DNA from: Polyodon spathula
Lineage: Eukaryota; Chordata; Actinopteri; Acipenseriformes; Polyodontidae
NCBI RefSeq assembly: GCF_017654505.1
Contig: NC_054559.1
Span: forward strand, 4,937,281 to 5,001,280
Direction of reading: 5' to 3'
DNA: 64,000 nucleotides
Below are positions 9,372 through 64,000 of this stretch, in pieces (positions within the stretch are counted from its first letter, which is position 1; every line of letters begins with the position of its first letter). The notes below the pieces were generated by a model, which saw only the letters and a program-made list of their open reading frames with translations, was not told the origin of the DNA and searched no databases. The translations under genes and the position numbers were made by a program.

Positions 9372-9816
9372 TGTGACAGTGAGGGCTGTAGTGGTGACAT
9401 CAGACCACCAAATGAAACAGAAACACTAAACATGAGAGGTAAAACTGAGGCTCTACGGTGCTCAGTGTTTTATTAAACAGAAAATAATGATTTAAACAAA
9501 AACGCACAAAAGGAAAGGGCACATTGGCCAAACAAACACTAACAAATTCCACATTTTACACAAGTCCCATGAATCGCTTACCAGTAGCTGTCAACTCCTC
9601 TTTTCTCTTAACTCCTCTACTCCTCCTTTTTATTTTATGTGGCTGGAGCCTTAATTACCCATTAAACAAACAATTACCTTATTAAGGCTCCAGCCACATT
9701 CCAACAGGCTTTATTAGGATGGGGATTTTAACCTCATCCATGCCATTAACATTTTACAGGACCGGCTTAAATAACCGATCTCAAATAATAAACAACGGCT
9801 TTCATCCATCCTCACA
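9372..9816 (-). repeat. LTR-like repeat with promoter-proximal inverted repeat
   Basis: Bounded by TGTGACAGTG at 9372 and CCTCACA ending at 9816, so on the minus strand it runs TGTGAGG...TGTCACA. It has a TATA-like box just after an inverted repeat, and an AATAAA-type signal (TTTATTAAACAG on the plus strand at about 9468-9479). No target duplication was found. Its layout matches the LTR-like repeats at 20669-21164, 46574-47182 and 63490 onward, although the sequence differs. Confidence 0.55.
9637..9699 (-). promoter_or_regulatory. 19-bp inverted repeat next to TATA-like box
   Basis: Arms 9637-9655 (ATGTGGCTGGAGCCTTAAT) and 9681-9699 are exact reverse complements with a 25-base spacer. Read on the minus strand, the hairpin runs directly into CATAAAATAAAAAGG, a TATA-like box. 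Confidence 0.75.
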
Positions 9817-20668: not shown

Positions 20669-21164
20669 ACTCTCAGGTTCGTTGCCCCTTTAAAAGTCAC
20701 TTACCCAACACACAGAATTGCAGACTTAGAGCGGTTGCGCACATTTACAAAAATGAGAAAAACCAAGTGAAACAAAACAAACACCTAGCTCTATAGGCGC
20801 ACTAACTAAACAAATCAGAACCTAACTAACAACAGGACAGCTAAGATGTTTACCTGCTAACACAAAAACAAACAAAAAAACCACACAGTTTTTACAAATA
20901 ACTTTTTCAAAAGGCTAGACACAGTACCTTTCTTTCCCATACGCTTGTGTACACTCTCAAGCGGGCTCTCCACACAGCAGCAGCCCAGAACAGACTGGTT
21001 ACTTTCTTTAAATACCCTGCACCTGGCTCTAATTTACAATGATAGCCAGGTGCAGGGGATAATTACTAATAAAACAATCAAATAAAACAATTAAATCAAC
21101 AAATGTGCATTTGCACATTTTTTTTTAAGCAGGGAGGAATTAACCCTCTCCCTGCTCACACTGC
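20669..21164 (-). repeat. Solo-LTR-like insertion in the HECT pseudogene
   Basis: Flanked by the exact 6-base direct repeat ACTGTA at 20663-20668 and 21165-21170. Joining the flanks restores plausible coding sequence, which supports a real insertion. On the minus strand it begins near TGTGAGCAGGGAG and ends near GAGAGTTACA, LTR-like but with termini slightly offset from the repeat edges. It contains an inverted repeat next to a TATTTAAA box (see next entry). Confidence 0.65.
21006..21057 (-). promoter_or_regulatory. 14-bp inverted repeat next to TATA-like box
   Basis: Arms 21015-21028 (CCCTGCACCTGGCT) and 21044-21057 are exact reverse complements with a 15-base loop. On the minus strand they are followed at once by a TATTTAAA box at 21006-21013. 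Confidence 0.75.
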
Positions 21165-24337: not shown

Positions 24338-24355
24338 CATTTTGTAAATTTTATA

Positions 24356-24419
24356 ATTAGGTAGAAAACCAGTATCCTATATATCCAAAAAACAAAGGGA
24401 TACTGGTTTTCTACCTAAT
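24356..24419. repeat. 22-bp perfect palindrome
   Basis: 24356-24377 (ATTAGGTAGAAAACCAGTAT..) and 24398-24419 are exact reverse complements with a 20-base loop. Weaker pairing (ATAATTTATA-type) extends further out on both sides. Confidence 0.85.
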
Positions 24420-24600
24420 TACAATTTATAATACTTGTGCATTGCATATATGTGTGTTTCTATATTAATCTATAGAATTATTTTATATATATATATAGTA
24501 CTATATATATAGTAAAGTTTTTTTACTATGATTTCTTTTCATATATTGATATGTACTGTTACACCCTTTTGCTTATTTGCATTTTGTTCATATTTATTTA

Positions 24601-28448: not shown

Positions 28449-29183
28449 AAAGCATGTGTGAATGTGTGTAAGGAAATTTACAGTATAATCGTAAATCTCG
28501 AAAAACTACTCACTTCTAAATCTTTTGTAGTCATTTTTGTATTACTTTAGTATAAATACATGTTAATTTGGATTCATGTGTTGTTTTTTTCTGACTTTAT
28601 GTGAACGAAAAGACACAAAAGCTCCCATTTTCTCATTGGAAATAGTGATATTTCAAAATATCACTGTCCTGGTCACAAAAGCAAAGTCTGTGGGGAATAA
28701 TAGCCATTTTCTATACTTTTGAGGCATAAGCAATTAGGAAATAACACTTACTACCCAGGAAGAAAAAAAAAAAAAATTGTTACACGGTGTAATCCCATTA
28801 TCACAGCTATCAAAGAAATAATAACATAGGAGACATTCTAAATCATGCCATACCCCTCTCACTACAGACTAGAGCTGGTACTAGGCTAAGAATGTAGCAG
28901 CAATGGCAACACATGAGCTATAATTGCTATATGTGAATAAACACCACCACCAGTATTCACTACAGTTTGTAAACTTCACACACAAAGTAGCAGTTTCTCA
29001 AAACCCTACCGCAGCTCCTACTTCCCAGCCCGGCATCCATGCTCACACAAACTGCTCGTTATCCTGAACATCCTCCCAGCTCTGACTCATTCTTCTTAAT
29101 GAGGCTTTAAAGTATTCAGCTACAAAAAAATTGGACTAATTAATCAATTACAAGATTTCCTTACACACATTCACACATGCTTT
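28449..29183. repeat. 735-bp unit bounded by a perfect 29-bp inverted repeat
   Basis: 28449-28477 (AAAGCATGTGTGAATGTGTG...) is the exact reverse complement of 29155-29183. Inside, 28482-28762 is one arm of the foldback palindrome found at 52119-52686. The remainder, to 29154, is non-coding. It may be a composite foldback or MITE-type element. Family unknown. Confidence 0.65.
28482..28762 (+). repeat. Solo arm of the foldback element
   Basis: About 281 bases matching the right arm 52408-52686 at high identity by eye, from AGTATAATC to ACTACCCAGGAA, including GATATTTCAAAATATCACTG and GAGGCATAAGCAATTAGGAA. The complementary arm is absent here. Confidence 0.85.
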
Positions 29184-46573: not shown

Positions 46574-47182
46574 TGTCACAAAGACGGCTGAGTGGAGACG
46601 TCAGAACAAGGAAACGAATACACAAAGACAGAACAGATGAGGTGGAATGATGAAGACGCTTGCTTGCGCAGGTTTATTGCAAATAAAAGGTTTAAACAGA
46701 CAAAAGGCAGGACACGACACTTTACGCCAAAACAAAAAGACAAACAAAACAGACTATACTAAACAAACACGGTGAGCAGATCGACACACTAACAAACACG
46801 ATGAGTTTAAATAAACAAGTATCGCGCTGGTCTTTCTCCTCCTCTCTCTCCTGTTCCCTACTCACCAAACACCCAACAACCCCTAGTGAGTAAAACGTGC
46901 ATCTATATATATATGTTGTGCTGGGATTCAATTACCAATTAATTATTCACTTGAATCCCAGCATGTGAATTAATTATGTGCAACCTCGTGCTCACATATT
47001 AAATACTTTAAATGCACGTGAAGTGATGTACAATCCCGTGCCTAAATACAATTATACATTTTTAAACACGTGTGAAACACAGACCTGTTTATATCCCGTG
47101 TACCAATGCCTATACACCAACATTTAACACACCACACGCAACATATATAAAAAATACACACAGGGGCAGGAACTTTGTCACA
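46574..47182 (-). repeat. Solo LTR with 5-bp target duplication
   Basis: 609 bases bounded by TGTCACAAAG and CTTTGTCACA, with CCTTG on both sides (46569-46573 and 47183-47187). On the minus strand it has a hairpin, a TATATATATA box and AATAAA followed by U5-like sequence ending GTCTTTGTGACA. It is the same family as the LTR starting at 63490. No internal region is present, so it is a solo LTR. Confidence 0.8.
46903..46962 (-). promoter_or_regulatory. 12-bp inverted repeat next to TATA-like box
   Basis: Arms GCTGGGATTCAA (46920-46931) and TTGAATCCCAGC (46951-46962). On the minus strand the hairpin is followed by a TATATATATA box at 46903-46914. Confidence 0.8.
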
Positions 47183-47187
47183 CCTTG

Positions 47188-47980
47188 CTACAAAGTCTGT
47201 ACCCCTATCACTCTCTACTGATAAGGAATACCCCATCTGCAATATATTTGTTCCCCCATTACCTTTGCTGTTACAACAGCTGTGCTGTTTTTAATTCAGA
47301 ACATATCAAACAGATTTCAGCTTTCCCTTTTTCTTAACTGATGACAGGTTCATTTGTCAACAAACCAGGCAGTTGGCAAGCAACCAAAATATACTATGCA
47401 TTAGCTCAAAAGCTATTTTCAAAGCTGTATAAAACTCCCCCCTTTGGTTGCTGACACAATATGAAATACCAGAGTTGCATTGGACTGCAAAAGATTCTGA
47501 ATACATATGAAAACAAAAGCACAACACAGTCTGTGACATCACTGCTAGCACACTTAATTCAGATCACTTTGTCAAATTTATAAAGAGGAAAAACTGACAG
47601 AAAAAAGCCACATAATGTGCATGTTCAGTATGGCCACACTCATCATCAAAATAACAACCTATTTTATAAGACTAGTTAGGTAAAGCAGGAGATTCTTCAA
47701 TCACAAAATTTAAATACCCACCCCTCACCACAATTAGCTGTGGAGAATTACACACCTCTCACAATAAATAGCGGGTTTGAGTCAACCCTGCGTGTGTAGG
47801 CTACACATTCCAAAAGAAAATGAATGGCATACAAAGACCTCAGCTTGGTACTAGCCATGGTGATGAGAATGCTCAGAAATGAAAACTGAAATTTACCAAT
47901 ATGGAATTGGAGATTTCGGATGGACAGACGAAAGCTGTCCATCATTGTTATTTACAATTTCAGACCGGCGAAAAAGCCAA
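47188..47980. other. No gene recognised
   Basis: AT-rich with no feature seen. A frame from 47879 runs into the GC-rich repeat below but has no domain. Confidence 0.35.
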
Positions 47981-48520
47981 GGGATCCGCTGCCGCCGTTG
48001 CCTCCCGAGGGTCCGCTGCCGCTGTCGCTTCCGGAGGGATCTGCTGCCGCCGTCGCCTCCCGAGGGATCCGCTCCCGCAGTCGCCTCCCGAGGGTCCGCT
48101 GCCGCCGTCGCCTCCCGAGGGATCCGCTGCCGCCGTCGCCTCTCGAGGGCCCGCTGCCGCCGTCGCCTCCCGAGGGCCCGCTGCCTCCGTCGCCTCCCGA
48201 GGGCCCGCTGCCTACCGCAGCGGAGTCGCTCCCAGGCGGGAGGCAGCGGAGCAGCCTCCGTCGCCTCCCGAGGGTCGAGGGCCGTCGTCGCCTCCCGCAG
48301 GGCCCGCTGCCGGCGTCGCCTCCCGAGGGCCCGCTGCCTCCGTCGCCTCCCGAGGGTCCGCTGCCACCGTCGCCTCGCGAGGGATCCGCTGCCGAGCCGG
48401 CGCCTCGCGGTCAGGGTCGAGCTCCCCGTAGCCGACGACATCCCGAGGGTCAGCTGCCCTCCTGAGGGTCAGCTGCTGCCGTCGCCTCCCGAGGGTCTGC
48501 TGTTGCCATCGACTGGGGTA
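47981..48520 (+). repeat. GC-rich 27-bp minisatellite
   Basis: About 18 imperfect units of the type CCGCTGCCGCCGTCGCCTCC + CGAGGGT, with disturbed stretches at about 48215-48290 and 48385-48450. The unit is nine codons long and lacks stops in most frames, which explains long overlapping open frames on both strands (PLPPSPPEG or SAAAVASRG per unit). It contrasts sharply with the AT-rich surroundings. It may have expanded from a proline-rich retroelement gag. I do not call a protein. Confidence 0.85.
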
Positions 48521-49195
48521 CAGTACAGTCTGCAACAGCGATTCTTAATCCCCAGTCACTCTGTTCCTCCTGTCAGTCCCTCGGTTCCAATAAACGCCAT
48601 GCTCAAATTCAGAAGGTAGGAACGTAAATGTAATTATTTTGTTACTTTTTCCTCGAAGGGTATGATAATCGTGTTCTGGACTGCGACAAAGTTTCTGATT
48701 TGAAATCTAAGGACCCCGGTGTGTTCAAAAAACTTTTCCGGAATTTGTTTCAGCTTTATGGACCATAGATGTCTATAGAGACATCTTCTGTGATGCACAG
48801 CCAATGCACCGTCAGGAATTAGACCCTACCTCAGTATCATTACTGATTTGTCAATGAGGCAATTTGTCATAGGTAATTTTCCACTAAGGCCGCTGTAATT
48901 CTTGAGCAGTTAAATGAGTTGTTCTGGACAATAAATTATTTCGTAGAACTAAAGGTACTTTCCTGGCAGATTTGTGGCTCCGCCCAACACAGAACTTAAC
49001 CGTGCCCCTTATCAGCTTAATCCTCCCATGGATTCTCTAAGGTTTCCTCCTGTCATCTTGTGGGTGAGCAGGGGGGTTTCCTTACCTGAATGCCAGGTGG
49101 TCTAATTCTGCAAGGTGGTGGAGGCTAGGTGGCCTTGCATGCCACTTCTCCTGCCCAGCACAGGGGTGGCTAGCGAGCTCCAATGGACAAGGCCA
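48521..49195 (+). repeat. Dispersed repeat shared with 61700-61830
   Basis: The part 49010-49130 (AATCCTCCCATGGATTCTCT, AAGGTTTCCTCCTGTCATCT, GTTTCCTTACC, TCTGCAAGGTGG) aligns with the reverse complement of 61700-61830. The rest, 48521-49010, has no recognisable feature. Confidence 0.5.
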
Positions 49196-50330
49196 TGGGC
49201 CAATGTTTTTACAATTTTTACAAGCCCTTAGCCCTTGTGCCCTGTTTGTTTGTGTGCATTTCTGTTAATAAACACACGCAACAGCGCTTCAACTGCAGCT
49301 CCTGTCTCCGAGTCTCTCATTCCTGCCGGTTACACTTTCGGCTGTGATGCTATCCTGTCACACATGATGTCAGAGTTAGATAGTACCCCTGGAGACTCAA
49401 AGCACAACTGCAGTTTATGGACTCAAATAAAGCCTGGCACCAGGAGCAACGGCAGCGGGAAGCTGAAGGGCTCCATGGTGCAGAGCTTTTGGGCAGTTTG
49501 GGCACCGAGATGCTTGTCCCTTTGAAGACCCACAGTTCATGGAGGCCTTCACAAGAGATGAGGTGTAGTAGGCCAAGGAATGACTCTGCGGGAAGGTCCA
49601 ACCCTAGCCGCCCACCCGACAGCACAAGATGGGACCATCTGCATTCCAATTTCTATGGGACGGAGGATTAGACGTCCACCTTGTCTGCCTCGATGACCAA
49701 TGTTGCCACCTCTTCTGTGGCAAGTTCAGGCACTCGGTGATATGCTGCCCCCTCCAAGATCAGGAGGAGGAGCTACGTACCTGAATGCCCAAGAAGGAGG
49801 AACGACCTGCCTGAAAGAGTAGGAAGGGGACAGGTGGCAGTTCCTGGAGATGAGCAGAGGGAGAAGCCCTGCTGTCTTCAGGGAAAAAGAGAGAAGAACC
49901 ACTGTTGTCTCCAGAGTGGGAAGGGGAGGAGCCACTTCCATCTCCAGTGCTAAAGGGGAAGGGGCTGTTGCCATCTCCAGAGTAAAAGGGGGAGGGGCCA
50001 CTTCCATCTCCAGTGCCAACGGGGAGGGGCTGTTGCCATCTCCAAAGCAAAAGATGGAGGAGCCGTTGTTGTCTCCAGTGCCAGAGGAGGAGGGGCTTCT
50101 GGTAGCTCCAGAGCCAGCAGGGTAATCAACCTTGGCAGCCGCTACACCTGCTGCTTAAGGGAGCATGGCCAAAACCAGCCACAAGTCCAGAGTGCCCAGT
50201 GTCGCCACCTCTGGAATGCCCCGCGCTACTGCCAGTGTTGTTATGCCAGAATGCCCACGTCGCCACTTTCGGAGTGCCCCACACCGCTGCCAGCATCGCC
50301 ACTACTGTCAATTACTATATGAAAGTACTA
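49196..50330 (+). pseudogene. LTR retroelement end and gag-like relic
   Basis: An AATAAACAC signal (49269), a U5-like stretch ending TGTCACACA (49364) and then TGATGTCAGAGTTAG look like an LTR end and primer site; the Gmr1-like element has TGGTGTCATTGTGG at the same place. Downstream a frame from 49417 reads MDSNKAWHQEQRQREAEG. Near 49690-49760 a CCHC-like phrase (CCHLFCGKFRHSVICCP) appears, then an acidic/proline repeat at 49910-50115 (EPLPSPVLKGKGLLPSP), imperfect units of about 33-36 bases. Stops and frameshifts throughout. Family not certain. Confidence 0.45.
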
Positions 50331-52118: not shown

Positions 52119-52686
52119 GTTCCTGGGTAGTAAGTGTTATTTCCTAATTGCTTATGCCTCAAAAGTATAGAAAATGGATATTATTCCCCACAAACTTTGC
52201 TTTTGTGACCAGGACAGTGATATTTCGAAATATCACTATTTCCAATGAGAAAACGAGCAAATGTGTGTCTTTTCGTTCACATAAAGTCAGAAAAAAACAA
52301 CATATGAATCCTAATTAACATGTATTTATACTAAAGTAATACAAAAATGACTACAAAAGATTTAGAAGTGAGTAGTTTTTCGAGATTTATGATTATACTG
52401 TATTTATAGTATAATCATAAATCTCAAAAAACTACTCACTTCTAAATCTTTTGTAGTCATTTTTGTATTACTTTAGTATAAATACATGTTAATTTGGATT
52501 CATATGTTGTTTTTTTCTGACTATGTGAATGAAAAGACACACATTCACCCGTTTTCTCATTGGAAATAGTGATATTTCAAAATATCACTGTCCTGGTCAC
52601 AAAAGCAAAGTTTGTGGGGAATAATATCCATTTTCTATTCTTTTGAGGCATAAGCAATTAGGAAATAACACTCACTACCCAGGAAC
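52119..52686. repeat. Foldback palindrome with 280-bp arms
   Basis: Arms 52119-52399 and 52408-52686 are nearly exact reverse complements around an 8-base loop (52400-52407). Arm landmarks are CTGGGTAGTAAGTGTTATTT at the outside and GATTTATGATTATACT at the centre. Each arm also contains its own small palindrome (GATATTTCGAAATATCAC). No coding capacity. A solo arm lies at 28482-28762. Confidence 0.9.
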
Positions 52687-55450: not shown

Positions 55451-56055
55451 TGTGATGAGTGAAAGGGGTTTCGGTCTGCAATTCAGCCTCCCAACAGTAG
55501 AAGGCGTCAAACCAACTCGGGACTTCCCTTACCAAGGTCTTGTGACCATGACAAAAGTCATCTTTTTGAGGGGCGGCACCTTGGTGAGGGGCGGAAGTAC
55601 GAGTATGTAAATTCCAGCCACTGGAGTCAAGTGAAGTTAAGGATACCTGTCAGTCTGGGATTGGTGATCCACTGACTACCGGGGCGGGGTTTGCATACTA
55701 AAGGGAACGTGCTACTGTGTTCGGGGTTGGTCCTGAGGAATAGAGGCGGGGAAAAAAAAGGCTGGAGGGAAGTACGTGCGGGGTTGGACTGTGTTATTTA
55801 CTTTTAATTATGGACGGAGGCCTTACTAACTTTGCTCTTTTCTGTTTTTATTCCTTTTTGTTTCATTTTGGATTGAGCAGATCACGAAGGGGATTAAGAG
55901 GCTTCTGTTCCTTTATTTTTTATTACTCCAGCACTCCCTCCCTCACATCCTTCTTTATTGTTTTTTTCTTTTCCGTGTAATATTAAATACAATTTTTATT
56001 TTTTTTACACGTAAATCGCTGTCTGGAAAATCCATTTTTACTCACACGCCTCACA
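55451..56055 (+). repeat. 5' LTR of the Gmr1-like element
   Basis: Starts TGTGATGAGTGAAAGG and ends GCCTCACA. It carries T-rich and AT-rich R/U5-like sequence with ATTAAATACAAT near its end. About a dozen differences from the 3' LTR. Confidence 0.95.
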
Positions 56056-56057
56056 CG

Positions 56058-56074
56058 TGGTGTCATTGTGGGAT
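56058..56074 (+). promoter_or_regulatory. Primer-binding site
   Basis: TGGTGTCATTGTGGGAT two bases after the 5' LTR, the normal position for tRNA priming of minus-strand DNA. Which tRNA is not determined. Confidence 0.75.
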
Positions 56075-57349
56075 ATGGATCCAGCTACAGTCTTGGCGAT
56101 ATTTAGGGAGCAGGAGGCGAAGCGAGAGGAGAGGGAAGCACGGCACCAGGAACAGCTCGCCCAGTTCTTTGGTCAGCTGGTAGAGAAAATCTCGACACCA
56201 GCGGCGGAAACAACGGTTGCCTGGATGTTTTCTTCACAACCAAAGTTACAGAAGATGACTCCGGAAGATGATCCTGAGGCGTTCTTGGTCACCTTTGAGA
56301 GAGTGGCAGAAGCAGCAGGGTGGCCAAAGGAACACTGGGCCATGAAATTGGCACCCTGTTTGACAGGAGAAGCGCAAGCAGCGTACAGAGCATTAATGGC
56401 CTCAGAGGCCGCGGATTATACAAAAGTAAAAGAAGCCATTCTCTCACGCCTCGGGATCACGGAAGAAACATACCGGCGCCGTTTCCGGGAATACCAGCTG
56501 TCCAAGGGGGTGCGGCCCCGGGTTGCGGGACAGTATCTCCTGGATCAGTGCACCCGGTGGCTGCAGCTGGAAGAACACACACCCCAAGAACTGGTGCAGA
56601 AGATCGCCATAGAGCAGTTTGCATCCATACTACTGCCAGGAAATCAGGAGTGGGTTAAAAGGAATCAACCTACCACTCTCGAGAAGGCCATCATCCTGGC
56701 GGAGGAATATAAGGATGCGAACGAAGGTGCTGCCTCTGACCCCACTCCTGCACCTAAACTAACCAGGACCAACACATCAGTGAAGCCCAGAGGAGGTAAC
56801 CAGACCTTCAGACCATGGAGGTCGAGGTTAGCCCCATCTTGGGCGAGAGAAAAACCCCCTAACCTGTCGGTCACCGACTCACAGGACAAGCAAACTCCAT
56901 TGGTGCCTTCTACCCCAGTTTGTTACCGATGCAATGAGCCCGGACATATAGCCAGGGACTGTCCGATGATGGAGGTAGACCTGGCAAGAAGATCCTGGTC
57001 AGCAGTAACAGGTAAGAACACTGGGGAATGTCGGGAGGGCCCTTATCAATTAAGAGTACAGGTCGGGGATAAGAGTACTAATGCATTTGCGGACTCTGGG
57101 TGTGCACAAACATTGATTCGACAAGCTCTTTTGGAGGGGGTAACCTGGGAGCCACAGGGTAAAGTGGCTATCTCATGTATCCATGGAGAAACTTGGGTTT
57201 ATCCCACCACTAAAGTTAGACTTACTGTTGATGATTACTCAGCTTACGTTAAAGTGGCTGTAGCGCAATGTCTACCATACCCTGTTCTCCTGGGAAGATC
57301 GTATTTTAGGTCGGGAAATGGTCTTAGTTTCTACCAGGGGACAATCTAA
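56075..57349 (+). CDS. Gag (SCAN-like capsid, zinc knuckle) and protease region
   Basis: I choose ATG 56075 (MDPATVLAIFREQEAK), which directly follows the primer site; 425 codons to TAA 57349. A glutamate/arginine-rich N-terminal helix precedes a capsid segment with DPEAFLVTFERVAEAAGWP and AIEQFASILLPGNQEWVK, close to the SCAN signature (EQF-x-x-I-L-P ... Q-x-W-V). A CCHC zinc knuckle CYRCNEPGHIARDC lies at about residues 288-301. The aspartic protease motif reads FADSGCAQTLI, with DSGC instead of DSGA. The protease end LLGRSYFRSG loses frame at about 57310, and the following pol frame overlaps. Whether the overlap was a programmed shift or is damage cannot be told from one copy. Confidence 0.88.
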   Translation: MDPATVLAIFREQEAKREEREARHQEQLAQFFGQLVEKISTPAAETTVAWMFSSQPKLQKMTPEDDPEAFLVTFERVAEAAGWPKEHWAMKLAPCLTGEAQAAYRALMASEAADYTKVKEAILSRLGITEETYRRRFREYQLSKGVRPRVAGQYLLDQCTRWLQLEEHTPQELVQKIAIEQFASILLPGNQEWVKRNQPTTLEKAIILAEEYKDANEGAASDPTPAPKLTRTNTSVKPRGGNQTFRPWRSRLAPSWAREKPPNLSVTDSQDKQTPLVPSTPVCYRCNEPGHIARDCPMMEVDLARRSWSAVTGKNTGECREGPYQLRVQVGDKSTNAFADSGCAQTLIRQALLEGVTWEPQGKVAISCIHGETWVYPTTKVRLTVDDYSAYVKVAVAQCLPYPVLLGRSYFRSGNGLSFYQGTI

Positions 57350-57512
57350 GCAACGGGAGAAAACAATTGCCGAGATTTTCCCGTTACAATCCGACCTGTT
57401 TAACCCTAAAATCCACCCGAGAAAAACAAAGAGAGAGCGCAGGGTGGAAAAATATGAGGGAACTCTGAGACGACAAGGGGAGGGGTCTGACTCAAAGGTA
57501 AACCAAAAATGA
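57318..57512 (+). pseudogene. Pol linker between protease and integrase
   Basis: A 64-codon frame (STRGQSKQREKTIAEIFPLQ) continues the polyprotein out of frame with gag and stops at 57512, where the next frame (NDPTLRYAWKQ) takes over. Basic and rich in K/R. Confidence 0.6.
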
Positions 57513-58833
57513 TCCCACGTTACGGTATGCTTGGAAACAGGTTAGATATGTTGAGGGGAAGGATATGCAGGAAGGACAACCAGTGGTATTTCCGCATTTT
57601 TCCGTATCTGGGCACTTATTATATAGAATAACCCGGGCTCCCGGGACGGGACAGCTCGTAAAACAGTTATTGGTTCCTGGGCCTTTTCAGTCGGAAGTCA
57701 TGAGACTGGCGCATGACATTCCATCTGCAGGTCATTTAGGAACTGAAAAGACCCAGGAACGAATTCTGGCCCAGTTTTTTTGGCCAGGGGTTTATGGTCT
57801 TGTGCGGAAGTATGTATCTGAGTGTCCGGAATGTCAATTAGCTGTCCCTAAGTTAGTTCGCCCCGCACCTCTGCTCTCACTGACAATTATTGGAGTACCG
57901 TTTGAGAGGATTGGTGTAGATTTAGTAGGCCCTCTGGAGGGAACAGAGTCAGGATATCGGTATATTTTGGTAGTAGTGGACTACGCAACACGATATCCAG
58001 AAGCTGTTCCCTTACGCTCTATGAGTGCAGAAGTAGTAGCAAATGAATTGGTTAAAATATTTTCTAGGGTGGGAATCCCGAAAGAAATTCTCACTGATCA
58101 GAGCACTAATTTTATGTCTGACTGTATTCAGCAATTATACAAATTATTGAAAATCCGTTCAATTCGAACCTCAGTTTTTCATCCTCAAATGGATGGGCTT
58201 GTTGAACGATTTAATCAGACTTTAAAAAGTACGTTACGCCGCTTTGTAGATCAGGAGAAATGTAATTGGGCTAAACTGCTTCCCTACTTGCTCTTTGCAG
58301 TTCATGAGGTACTACAATCCTCAACGGGGTTCTCTCCGTTTGAGCTCTAGTACGGTCGGCAGTCGCGGGGTATCTTGGATCTCATAAGAGAAGGCTGGGA
58401 AGAACAGTCAAAAGACTCTAAAAATATAGTGAAATATGTATTACAGCTATGCGATCGCTTAGAATTAGTCGGTCGATTGGCACATGACAATCTCAAAGTG
58501 GCACAGCAGAAGCAGCAGCAAAGCTACAATAAAAATGCAAGAATTAGGAACTTTCGACCTGGAGACAAAGTGTTGTTGTTGCTTCCCTCATCAGAATCTA
58601 AGTTGTTTGCTAAATGGCAGGGTCCCTTTGAGGTAATTCGAGCAATTGGAAAAGTTAATTATGAGATCCGACAGCCTGGGCGTCGGAAGGAAAATCAAAT
58701 TTATCATGTTAATCTCCTCAAACCGTGGAAAGAACGGGAGGTCCATTTTATATCTCCCGAACAGGAGGGAGAGGACTATGGACCCTCAATTGAGCCAGTA
58801 TCAGCAGCTGGGTTCCGATGGGGGAACAATTAA
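57513..58833 (+). pseudogene. Integrase, located before the RT
   Basis: The N-terminal HHCC zinc domain reads RLAHDIPSAGHLGTEKT and CPECQLAV. The DDE core shows RIGVDLVGPL (Asp), LTDQSTNFMS (Asp, usually DQGTNF) and FHPQMDGLVERFNQTLK (Glu). A stop (TAG 58348-58350) lies in FEL*YGRQ, where the family has a residue. The C-terminal part to 58833 has FRPGDKVLLLLPS and KWQGPFEVI, the GPF/Y-type module, and YHVNLLKPW. It ends in TAA, overlapping the RT frame by 16 bases. The enzyme would join the DNA copy to the host. Confidence 0.9.
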
Positions 58834-59747
58834 CTCCTGATCAACGCAAAGAGGTAAGTAATTTAATCACAATGTTTGGTGATGTGTTTTCTAACGTGCC
58901 TGGAAGAACGCATTTGATTGAATGCGCGGTTATCACCCCGCCAGGTCTGAGAGTTAGACAGAGACCGTATCGCATTCCAGACAGTCGGAGAGATTCTGTC
59001 TGGAGGAAGGTGGAGTGTATGTTGAAACTTGGGATAATTGAACCTTCCCGAAGTGAGTGGTGTAGCCCAATTGTACCAATAGACAAACCAGATGGGTCAC
59101 TACGGTTATGTATAGACTTTAGGAGGGTGAATGCTATCTCTAAGTTTGATGCATATCCCATGCCTCGGGTAGGTGAACTCTTAGACAGGCTGGGGCGAGC
59201 TCGGTTTATTTCAACTTTGGATCTGACGAAAGGATACTGGCAAATTCCATTAGCAAAAGCCTCTTGTGAGAAAACAACATTCTCAACCCCAGACGGTCTT
59301 TTTCAATTTTGTACTCTGCCATTCGGACTTCATGGAGCTCCCACAACTTTCCAGAGACTGATGGACAGGGTATTACAACCTCATCGAGATTATGCAGCTG
59401 CATATATCGATGATGTAGTCATATACAGTTCTTCCTGGAAAGAACATTTGCATAGATTAAAAGCTGTCCTACATTCTCTGAGGAAGGCGGGGCTCACAGC
59501 GAACATTGCAAAGTGCACTATTGGAAAAGAAGAAACTAAATATTTAGGTTTCATAATGGGTAAGGGTAGAGTGAAACCATTGGTTTCAAAAGTCCAGGCT
59601 TCGTTGGATTCACCGGTACCTACCACAAAAACCCAGGTGAGATCATTGTTGGGATTGGCTGGTTATTACCGTCGCTTTATTCCACACTTTTCCACTATAG
59701 CTGCCCCTCTCACTGATCTCACTAAAGAGATTAAATTAAATTATTAA
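58818..59747 (+). pseudogene. Reverse transcriptase
   Basis: Palm motifs in order: VPIDKPDGSLRLCIDFRRVN, FISTLDLTKGYWQIPL, TFSTPDGLFQFCTLPFGL and AAYIDDVVIYSS (the catalytic DD), then LGLAGYYRRFIPHFS. The frame lies one base off the integrase frame. The end LTKEIKLNY* is caused by an AT-rich expansion around 59737-59760 that also shifts the frame. Confidence 0.93.
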
Positions 59748-59760
59748 ATTAAATAAAATT

Positions 59761-60267
59761 AAGTGGAGTGCAGAGTGTCAGATGGCTTTTAAGTCTATTA
59801 AAACTAACTTGAGTCAGGCCCCAGCATTAGTAAGCCCGGATTTCAGCCGAGAGTTCATCCTTCAGACCGATGCATCGCAGACTGGTCTGGGGGCGGTTCT
59901 GTCCCAGGAAAAAAATGGTATAGAACACCTGATACTATATATTAGTCGGAAGTTACTGCCGAGAGAACAAAGGTACTCTGTGGTAGAGAAAGAATGCCTG
60001 GCAGTAAAATGGACGGTGGAGTCCTTAAAATACTATCTTCTGGGACGACCCTTTGTACTCATCACAGATCACGCCCCTTTAAAGTGGTTAGACACAGTGA
60101 AGGATTCAAATACTAGGATTATGCGGTGGTACCTGGCACTCCAACCCTTCGCCTTTCACATAAGGCATCGTGCAGGTAAGTTACATCAAAACGCTGATTT
60201 TTTTTCCCAGGAGGGAGGGGAAAAGGAGGGGTTAGAGGTTTCCGAGGTTCCTTCGGCTCCACTCTGA
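59761..60267 (+). pseudogene. RNase H
   Basis: Reads KWSAECQMAFKSIK, ILQTDASQTGLGAVLSQ (first Asp), YSVVEKECLAVKWTV (Glu) and LITDHAPLKWL (Asp), then RAGKLHQNADFFSQ, the usual HxxGxxNxxADxLSR end. Stop at 60267, followed at once by the polypurine tract and the 3' LTR. Frame differs from the RT because of the lesion upstream. Confidence 0.9.
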
Positions 60268-60278
60268 GGGGTGGGATA
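60266..60278 (+). promoter_or_regulatory. Polypurine tract
   Basis: GAGGGGTGGGATA immediately before the TG of the 3' LTR, the plus-strand primer of the element. Confidence 0.75.
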
Positions 60279-60885
60279 TGTGATGAGTGAAAGGGGTTTC
60301 GGTCTGGAATTCAGCCTCCCAACAGTAGAAGGCATCAAACCAACTCGGGACTTCCCTTACCAAGGTCTTGTGACCATGACAAAAGTCATCTTTTTGAGGG
60401 GCGGCACCTTGGTGAGGGGCGGAAGTACGAGTATGTAAATTCCAGCCACTGGAGTCAAGTGAAGTTAAGGATACCTGTCAGTCTGGGATTGGTGATCCAC
60501 TGACTACCAGGGCGGGGTTTGCATACTAAAGGGAACGTGCTACTGTGTTCGGGGTTGGTCCTGAGGAATAGAGGCGGGGAAAAAAAAGGCTGGAGGGAAG
60601 TACGTGCGGGGTTGGACGGTGTTATTTACTTTTAATTACGGACGGAGGCCTTACTAACTTTGCTCTTTTCTGTTTTTATTCCTTTTTGTTTCATTTTGGA
60701 TTGAGCAGATCACGAAGAGGATTAAGAGGCTTCTGTTCTTTATTTTTGATTACTCCAGCACTCCCTCCCTCACATCCTTCTTTATTGTTTTTTTTCTTTT
60801 CCGTGTAATATTAAATAAAATTTTTTTTTTTTTTTTACACGTAAATCACTGTCTGGAAAATCCATTTTTACTCACATGCCTCACA
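60279..60885 (+). repeat. 3' LTR of the Gmr1-like element
   Basis: TGTGATGAG to CCTCACA, nearly identical to the 5' LTR and followed by the duplicated target ACAAT. Confidence 0.95.
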
Positions 60886-63489: not shown

Positions 63490-64000
63490 TGTGACAAAGT
63501 GCCCGCCCCTGTGTGTATTTTTCTGTTATATGTTGCATGTGATGTGTTAAATGTTGGTGTATAGTCATTGGTACAGGGGATATAAACGGGTCTGTGTAAC
63601 ACAAGTGTTTAAAATGTATATTTGTATTTAGGCACGAGGATTGCACAGCACTTCACGTGCAAGTAAAAAGTAATAATATGTGAGCACGGGGAATTGCACT
63701 TTATTAATTCACGTGCAGTTGTACCGAGACTCCAACTGAATGATTGATTAGCAATCAAGTCTTGGTACAGCTGCATAAAAGCAACATGTTTTCACCCACT
63801 CGGGGTTGGGTGTTCGGTGAGTGGAGAACGGGATTGGAGGCGGAGGTATTAGATCATTGTAAATAAGAACGTAAAGTTAAATATCTGCTCACCATGTTTT
63901 GTCTGTGTAGTTCGTTTTGTTTATGTCTATTTGTTTTGGTGTAAAGTGCGGTGCCCTGTCTTTTTGTCTGTTTATACTGTTTATTTACAATAAACCGGTG
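63490..64000 (+). repeat. LTR of the 46574-47182 family, cut by the window end
   Basis: Starts TGTGACAAAGTGCC and follows the minus strand of 46574-47182 throughout: CCCCTGTGTGTATTTTT, GTTAAATGTTGGTGTATAG, TTTAGGCACG, CACTTCACGTGCA, a hairpin, GGTGAG, GCTCACC.TGTTT and finally TTTACAATAAACC. It inserted in the gag part of the Ngaro-like relic. The window stops in the R/U5 part, so solo or full-length status is unknown. Confidence 0.85.
63715..63780 (+). promoter_or_regulatory. 17-bp inverted repeat next to TATA-like box
   Basis: Arms GCAGTTGTACCGAGACT (63715-63731) and AGTCTTGGTACAGCTGC (63758-63774) pair with two mismatches, both compatible with G-T pairing. The CATAAAAG box (63773-63780) follows at once. 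Confidence 0.7.

What the first reader, a model, noticed from the sequence alone, without database searches (positions are those of the whole stretch)
63715..63780. LTRs of one family keep a promoter-side hairpin although its sequence has changed
The copies at 46574-47182 and 63490 onward are the same LTR family, yet the stem reads GGGATTCAA/TTGAATCCC in one and CCGAGACT/AGTCTTGG in the other. Both strands of the stem have changed while pairing is kept. Two unrelated-looking LTR-like repeats (9372-9816, 20669-21164) carry a different perfect stem of 19 and 14 bp at the same place, directly upstream of a TATA-like box. Four of four such repeats in 64 kb have it. This suggests that a structure at the promoter edge is selected, for example a cruciform, an RNA fold across the LTR, or a palindromic protein site.
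Basis: partly seen in the sequence, partly recalled or inferred. Interest (0 to 1): 0.8.

Follow-up and report, generated by a model that had tools for sequence, protein, structure and literature searches.

The report
Promoter-edge hairpin in paddlefish LTRs
Several families of jumping elements in a paddlefish-like genome carry a hairpin right before their start signal, and related families keep it paired although its letters differ, which points to a job for the paired shape that has yet to be tested.

Summary
The four LTRs carry stems of 13, 18 (two G.T pairs), 19 and 14 bp ending 0-5 nt before a TATA-like box. They differ at 4 of 12 pairs, all as double, pair-keeping changes; older copies often carry a T.G wobble or mixed pair states, so changes came partly step by step. 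A second family pair (E, C') shows four double changes and one break. Against a simple reading: the A-type window LTR has an upstream flank closer to B than to old A copies, so part of the contrast is a module swap; within types there is no excess covariation; B-type copies often lack one pair. Best explanation: a pairing-selected U3 stem-loop, more likely acting as RNA near the transcript's 3' end than as a cruciform or dimer site. The strand test meant to show RNA was null. Function is untested.

The parts
63490..64000 (+). B-type LTR (first 511 of 605 bp; the rest lies beyond the window end)
63714..63775 (+). B-type promoter-edge stem-loop, 18 pairs (16 Watson-Crick, 2 G.T), loop 26
63776..63781 (+). 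TATA-like box TAAAAG, gap 0 to the stem
   Evidence: motif assigned by eye
46574..47182 (-). A-type solo LTR, 5-bp target duplication CCTTG
46919..46963 (-). A-type promoter-edge stem-loop, 13 bp perfect, loop 19
46903..46913 (-). TATA-like box TATATATATAG, gap 5 to the stem
   Evidence: motif assigned by eye
9372..9816 (-). C9 LTR, TGTG...CACA ends, no target duplication seen
9637..9699 (-). C9 promoter-edge stem-loop, 19 bp perfect, loop 25
20669..21164 (-). D20 LTR-like repeat; ends uncertain by a few bases
21015..21057 (-). D20 promoter-edge stem-loop, 14 bp perfect, loop 15, directly before TATTTAAAG
55451..56055 (+). 5' LTR of Gmr1-like element G; its best stem (55526-55590, 12 Watson-Crick and 1 G.T pair) is 104 nt from the TATA-like box assumed here
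60279..60885 (+). 3' LTR of element G (97.5% identical to the 5' LTR), same stem
56018..60264 (+). Element G coding pieces: SCAN-type gag, zinc knuckle, protease-like, integrase, then reverse transcriptase and RNase H

Best explanation
The U3 part of these LTRs ends, just before the TATA box, in a stem-loop whose base pairing is kept by selection on the copies that still replicate. Shown: the stem's place, its presence in 7 of 8 family representatives, homology between types with double pair-keeping changes, wobble states in older copies, and signs that it moves as one module by recombination. Inferred: selection as the cause, and that it acts mostly as an RNA hairpin. In a transcript started at the 5' LTR the stem would lie upstream of the expected start, so it would be present only in the 3' copy of U3, a few tens of bases before the repeated R region; there it could mark the 3' end for poly(A) site choice, export, packaging or the first strand transfer of reverse transcription. 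I hold a 3'-end RNA signal as the most likely class, without choosing among those four.
For: Position: best inverted repeat of the LTR ends 0-5 nt before TATA in 7 of 8 representatives. Structure: the 90 nt before TATA fold better than shuffles in 8 of 8 (sense z -3.2 to -7.1), the 90 nt after do not (z -1.4 to +1.8); in D20, C' and E the whole U3 folds as a row of hairpins (z -7.1, -4.7, -8.4). Pair-keeping change: B against A, 12 of 12 pairs kept with 4 changes in each arm, all 4 coincident; E against C', four double changes and one broken pair, counted by hand from sequences, of which the lower 13 and upper 5 pairs were simulated. Steps: T.G is the commonest state of pair 5 in old A-like copies, 37 of 70, beside T-A 24; of the 23 of 70 with all 12 pairs standing, 9 are T.G and 1 combines T-A at pair 5 with A-T at pair 7. 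A T.G pair is also the usual state of one outer B pair, 37 of 47. Loops run 15-47 nt, in E by 8-nt steps; large loops suit RNA better than cruciforms (general knowledge). Ten open stretches of four A/B and E internals gave no Pfam match, so these look non-autonomous and would have to keep cis signals (inference).
Against: The strand test did not single out RNA: in copies G.T 48 against A.C 38; in representatives 27 against 7, but the R-U5 control of the same LTRs gave 26 against 10, so composition explains it. Antisense folds are about as extreme by z (sense more extreme in 5 of 8). No covariation above shuffles within types. Pair 7 of B is neither Watson-Crick nor G.T in 21 of 43 copies, 14 of them C.T, so active B lineages probably tolerated a broken pair. 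Most D-family arms in the listing look constant in sequence, with no compensated variant seen by eye, not counted. The tight distance to TATA also fits a promoter role. No expression data were available.
Confidence: 0.4

Rival explanations
1. DNA-level structure: the inverted repeat next to TATA works in the promoter as extrudable or boundary DNA, for example keeping nucleosomes or silent chromatin off the start site.
For: Stem ends 0-5 nt before TATA in 7 of 8 representatives; no strand bias of wobbles beyond composition; a precedent in print: an inverted repeat in Ty1 forms a chromatin boundary (PMC11258251, passages read).
Against: Loops of 15-47 nt are unfavourable for cruciforms (general knowledge); the Ty1 paper's in vivo data did not support hairpin formation in the chromosome; T.G states were common in old lineages.
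Confidence: 0.25
2. Mutational upkeep: the pairing is not selected; quasi-palindrome correction (recalled) or template switching during reverse transcription copies one arm onto the other, and recombination spreads stem-loops as modules.
For: Young A-type stem-loops lie on B-like upstream flanks (median identity to B 0.879 against 0.715 to old A in 12 copies), and the A-type window LTR leans the same way (0.832 against 0.760), so stem-loops move as units; one fully paired mixture of pair states was seen.
Against: T.G was the commonest pair-5 state in old A-like copies (37 of 70), and T.G stands in most B stems at one outer pair (37 of 47), so correction is not rapid; persistence right at the TATA edge is not explained.
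Confidence: 0.17
3. Two inverted protein sites (a dyad) beside the TATA box, for example E-box-like halves such as CACCTG and CAGCTG.
For: D arms hold CACCTGG/CCAGGTG in most rows listed (by eye); E and C' arms share TGGCTGG/CCAGCCA; Sireviruses carry palindromic motifs upstream of TATA (PMC2829016, passages read).
Against: Arms are complementary over 12-19 bp; the half sites of A and B changed at the same 4 of 12 positions; loop length in E is 39 nt in 13, 47 in 3, 31 in 1 and 23 in 1 of 18, which turns the halves round the helix.
Confidence: 0.12
4. Plain inheritance: an old inverted repeat carried along neutrally, noticed because paired examples were picked.
For: Within-type decay looks neutral; the stems were chosen for being paired; the families are partly related (by eye).
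Against: With the same number of changes per arm, 12 of 12 pairs would stay paired by chance about 1 time in 7,500 (not corrected for the choice of stems); 7 of 8 representatives have the stem at one place.
Confidence: 0.06

Closest known systems
Sirevirus palindromic repeated motifs upstream of TATA in the LTR (PMC2829016, passages read)
   Same: dyad-symmetric elements in the LTR upstream of the TATA box, thought to act in cis
   Different: there: many copies of short palindromes (those seen in the passage 11-17 bp), mostly with a CGG-CCG core, in plant Ty1/copia elements; here: one long-armed stem with a large AT-rich loop right at TATA, and no core seen in all families
Ty1 GAGsi inverted repeat acting as chromatin boundary (PMC11258251, passages read)
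   Same: an inverted repeat in an LTR element that can fold and separates promoter chromatin from what follows
   Different: lies in gag of a yeast element and is perfectly conserved in 28 of 32 copies; no compensatory change mentioned in the passages read
Structured U3-R RNA elements of retroviruses, such as the Rex response element of HTLV-1 (recalled, not looked up)
   Same: RNA structure in the 3' LTR near the U3/R border
   Different: much longer folds bound by a viral protein; no relation shown here
Gmr1-like Ty3/gypsy elements with SCAN-type gag (names recalled; domains)
   Same: element G of the window has integrase before reverse transcriptase and a TGGTGTC sequence after its LTR; two A/B internals start with the same TGGTGTC
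   Different: A/B and E internals tested gave no Pfam match; the stem at TATA is clear in A-E, weaker in F, absent at that place in G
General LTR models of Benachenhou et al. (PMC3601003, passages read)
   Same: TG...CA ends, TATA, AATAAA
   Different: the passages read list no stem-loop directly before TATA among conserved LTR features

Membership tests
LTR of an LTR retrotransposon (A46, B63) | TG...CA ends, 4-6 bp target duplication, TATA-like box, AATAAA downstream | tested here: met
   A46: TGTGAC...GTGACA, CCTTG on both sides, AATAAA at LTR position 505; B63: ends and AATAAA (position 500) met, duplication not seen
LTR of an LTR retrotransposon (A46, B63) | occurs as same-strand pairs with primer-binding and polypurine sequences | tested here: inconclusive
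   same-strand loop pairs about 3 kb apart in the listing; L143 and L144 begin with an LTR end plus TGGTGTC and end purine-rich (by eye); match to a tRNA not tested
Gmr1-like Ty3/gypsy (element G) | integrase upstream of reverse transcriptase | tested here: met
   integrase domains in 57505-58830, RVT_1 in 58797-59744, RNase H in 59743-60264
Gmr1-like Ty3/gypsy (element G) | place in a pol tree with Gmr1 | not tested
   no tree was built; Gmr1 itself was not fetched
Gmr1-like Ty3/gypsy (A/B and E families) | pol of that type in the element | tested here: not met
   10 open stretches from L143, L144, L146, L147 gave no Pfam family; only a few copies were read, so longer copies with pol are not excluded
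Conserved RNA structure by covariation | more compensatory pairs than expected on a family alignment | tested here: inconclusive
   met between homologous types, not met within types
Conserved RNA structure by covariation | sense-strand bias to G.U over A.C | tested here: not met
   48 against 38 in copies; U3 of representatives no different from the R-U5 control
Palindromic dimer protein site | fixed spacing of half sites | tested here: not met
   loops 15-47 nt; E loops 23, 31, 39, 47
Cruciform | extrusion in supercoiled DNA | not testable with these tools
   needs nuclease or permanganate probing

The most novel reading that the evidence does not exclude
U3 of a whole group of vertebrate Ty3/gypsy-type LTRs is a modular row of one to three stem-loops whose last member is locked to the TATA box; elements exchange these stem-loops by recombination and evolve them under pairing selection, so the U3/R border is an RNA device shared by autonomous and non-autonomous families.
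Probability: 0.25. Interest if true: 0.72.

Novelty: new variant of a known kind. Interest (0 to 1): 0.5.

Why it matters
U3 is usually treated as a set of protein-binding sites on DNA. A stem kept by paired changes at its promoter edge, in very numerous elements (13,680 A/B-type loop matches with up to one mismatch and 11,710 E/C'-type hairpin matches with up to three, against 47 and 8 for reversed patterns), would add a structural signal to LTR anatomy, give a new handle for finding solo LTRs, and offer an easily mutated test of whether RNA or DNA shape acts at the U3/R border.

Tried and rejected
Chance hairpins: rejected. Strand asymmetry of wobbles as proof of RNA: looked strong in representatives (27 against 7) but fell away against the R-U5 control (26 against 10). 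Within-type covariation: three tests, all null (A and B, old A). In one search one B-like copy (L051) was filed as A by its loop; it was refiled. The flank tree had 45 of 76 inner branches open and served only to suggest module exchange, which was then checked by flank identity. My note says 7 perfect repeats of 12 or more; the table shows 8, used here. Window inverted repeats at 24354, 52382 and 19784 were looked at and are not LTR stems (by eye). Of 8 repeat pairs listed, 5 were looked at (F, G, an A/B pair, a LINE-like pair and one without LTR ends, by eye); three of 147-196 bp were not. Prior art was sought (listings); passages were read of PMC2829016, PMC3601003, PMC8042750 and PMC11258251. 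Nothing seen there describes this stem; most subscription papers and repeat libraries were not searchable. C' copies: 93 places counted, control 0, sequences not read.

Full report
Where we are. The window is G000:C26:4937281-5001280 of a genome of 1,541,705,134 bases. Contig 26 has 20,904,809 and contig 1 has 110,695,931 bases; the American paddlefish paper gives Chr26 20.87 Mb, Chr1 110.67 Mb and 1.54 Gb in all (PMC8042750, passages read). I take the organism to be Polyodon spathula; this is an inference from sizes.

The four stems. Coordinates are given under parts. The B-type stem at 63714-63775 has 18 pairs, 16 Watson-Crick and 2 G.T; A-type 13, C9 19, D20 14 pairs, all perfect. A first-order Markov null gave 0.2 repeats of arm 12 or more per 64 kb over 5 replicates; 8 were observed, 3 in these LTRs.

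More families. In the 283,802 bases held at that point (window plus L001-L022) the scan found further stems before TATA-like boxes: E (TCAGGTGGCTGGG arms, CATAAAAGG after) and C' (ATGTGGCTGGAGC arms, TATAAAAAGG after), besides further D copies. LTR-pair detection in a 272,720-bp stretch listed 8 repeat pairs; of the 5 looked at two are LTR elements outside A/B: F (positions 121647-127025 of that stretch) and G (window 55451-60885). Over 8 representatives the best inverted repeat of the LTR ended 0-5 nt before the TATA-like box in 7; F only equalled the shuffle maximum; G's stem lies 104 nt from the box I assumed. RNA folding of the 90 nt before TATA: sense z -3.2 to -7.1 in 8 of 8; after TATA -1.4 to +1.8. 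U3 of D20, C' and E folds into a row of hairpins.

What the elements are. G has SCAN-type gag, zinc knuckle, a protease-like match below its cut-off, integrase, then reverse transcriptase and RNase H, the pol order that I recall for Gmr1-like Ty3/gypsy elements. F shows reverse transcriptase and RNase H pieces and, by eye, an integrase-like piece before them, for which Pfam gave no match. A/B-type loops occur in same-strand pairs about 3 kb apart. Of six stretches read between such pairs (L143-L148), five show GC-rich tandem repeats; L145 looks unlike the others and may not be an internal (by eye). Ten open stretches from L143, L144, L146 and L147 gave no Pfam family. So the A/B and E copies read look non-autonomous.

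Copies of A/B elsewhere. The loop pattern, chosen to be blind to the arms, gave 13,680 matches with up to one mismatch, against 47 for the reversed pattern. Of the 100 listed places I read 80: the first 60 in order, then 20 of the last 40, favouring non-B loops; the 20 unread have B-type loops. A further 20 places came from the 100 listed, chosen mostly for rarer loops. Of these 100 copies, 10 with five or more broken pairs were dropped before the pair counts; of the rest, 12 of 12 pairs stand (G.T counted) in 22 of 47 A-like and 10 of 43 B-like copies, and at least 10 of 12 in 42 and 35.

Type A against type B. The two 12-bp cores align without gaps beside a homologous loop. Four pairs differ and all four differ on both sides, A-T/G-C or C-G/T-A. 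Placing the same number of changes at random left 6.0 of 12 pairs on average and reached 12 with P about 1.3e-4. The stems were picked because both are paired, so this P is optimistic. Old A-like copies show intermediate states: pair 5 is T.G in 37 of 70, T-A in 24, C-G in 1; pair 7 is G-C in 54, G.T in 6, A-T in 3 (71 places among the 100 rows after merging alternative ends, one dropped; some are the same places as loci among L029-L142). Of the 23 with all 12 pairs standing, 9 are T.G/G-C, 9 T-A/G-C, 3 T-A/G.T, 1 T.G/G.T and 1 T-A/A-T at pairs 5/7. L136 has the B state at pairs 5 and 7 and the A state at 3 and 10, with pair 4 broken. So pairs changed one by one, at least partly through wobbles.

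Young A-type copies carry B-like upstream flanks: median identity 0.879 to B and 0.715 to old A in 12 copies, 0.811 and 0.741 in 7 others, B to B 0.860. The window copy at 46574-47182 itself is at 0.832 to B and 0.760 to old A upstream, 0.630 and 0.654 downstream. Its contrast with the copy at 63490 is therefore in part a swap of a stem-loop module. The paired changes happened earlier, between the stem types.

Second comparison. E and C' arms align over 20 positions: four double changes, one broken pair near the base, and a one-base bulge in a different place (by hand). For the lower 13 pairs P is about 1.8e-3; for the upper five 0.10. The E/C' hairpin pattern gave 11,710 matches with up to three mismatches, control 8; of the first 20 of 100 listed places, 18 are E and 2 are C'; 14 of 18 E stems are perfect over 13 bp; loops are 39 nt in 13, 47 in 3, 31 in 1, 23 in 1. 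D: 910 pattern matches, control 1; most of the 100 rows listed have the same arms, by eye, not counted. The pattern used for D did not fix the arms but fixed the loop and TATA, so copies that lost these are not seen; the same holds for A/B.

Results against the reading. Shuffling the partner arm among copies gives no covariation: A P 0.53 (n 29), B P 0.81 (n 42), old A P 0.46 (n 70). Pair 7 of B is neither Watson-Crick nor G.T in 21 of 43. G.T and A.C are 48 and 38 in copies; in representatives 27 and 7 in U3, 26 and 10 in R-U5, so no strand signal. Within-type neutrality is expected for dead copies, but it means that the case rests on a few between-type comparisons.

Mechanism. I rank a 3'-end RNA signal first because of large and variable loops, common wobbles, hairpin rows filling U3, and the need of non-autonomous elements for cis signals; all of this is inference. 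A promoter or boundary role of the DNA repeat is next, with the Ty1 boundary as precedent. Mutational upkeep and dyad protein sites remain open at lower weight.

Noticed in passing
window 55451-60885: A Gmr1-like element (LTRs 97.5% identical) with SCAN-type gag and integrase before reverse transcriptase; not part of the finding given.
   Followed up: partly
L143, L144, L146, L147, L148: Internals of A/B- and E-type elements consist largely of GC-rich tandem repeats with long open stretches in many frames (one of 844 codons in L144, minus strand); ten plus-strand stretches gave no Pfam family.
   Followed up: partly
window 47974-50115: GC-rich 27/28- and 33-bp tandem repeats of similar style; BLAST found no match there to the internals read.
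   Followed up: partly
window 52322-52485: A long, nearly perfect palindrome with arms of about 80 nt, in a repeat whose partner copy lies at 28476-28767.
   Followed up: no
window 24354-24421: Perfect 24-bp hairpin just beyond a Tc1-like repeat (name by eye); not an LTR.
   Followed up: no
L103-L122: E-family loops change length in 8-nt steps (23, 31, 39, 47) while most arms stay constant.
   Followed up: yes
L057, L058: Two A-type LTRs 2.9 kb apart, identical in the flank columns compared, in a clade of near-identical A copies, which suggests recent activity.
   Followed up: no
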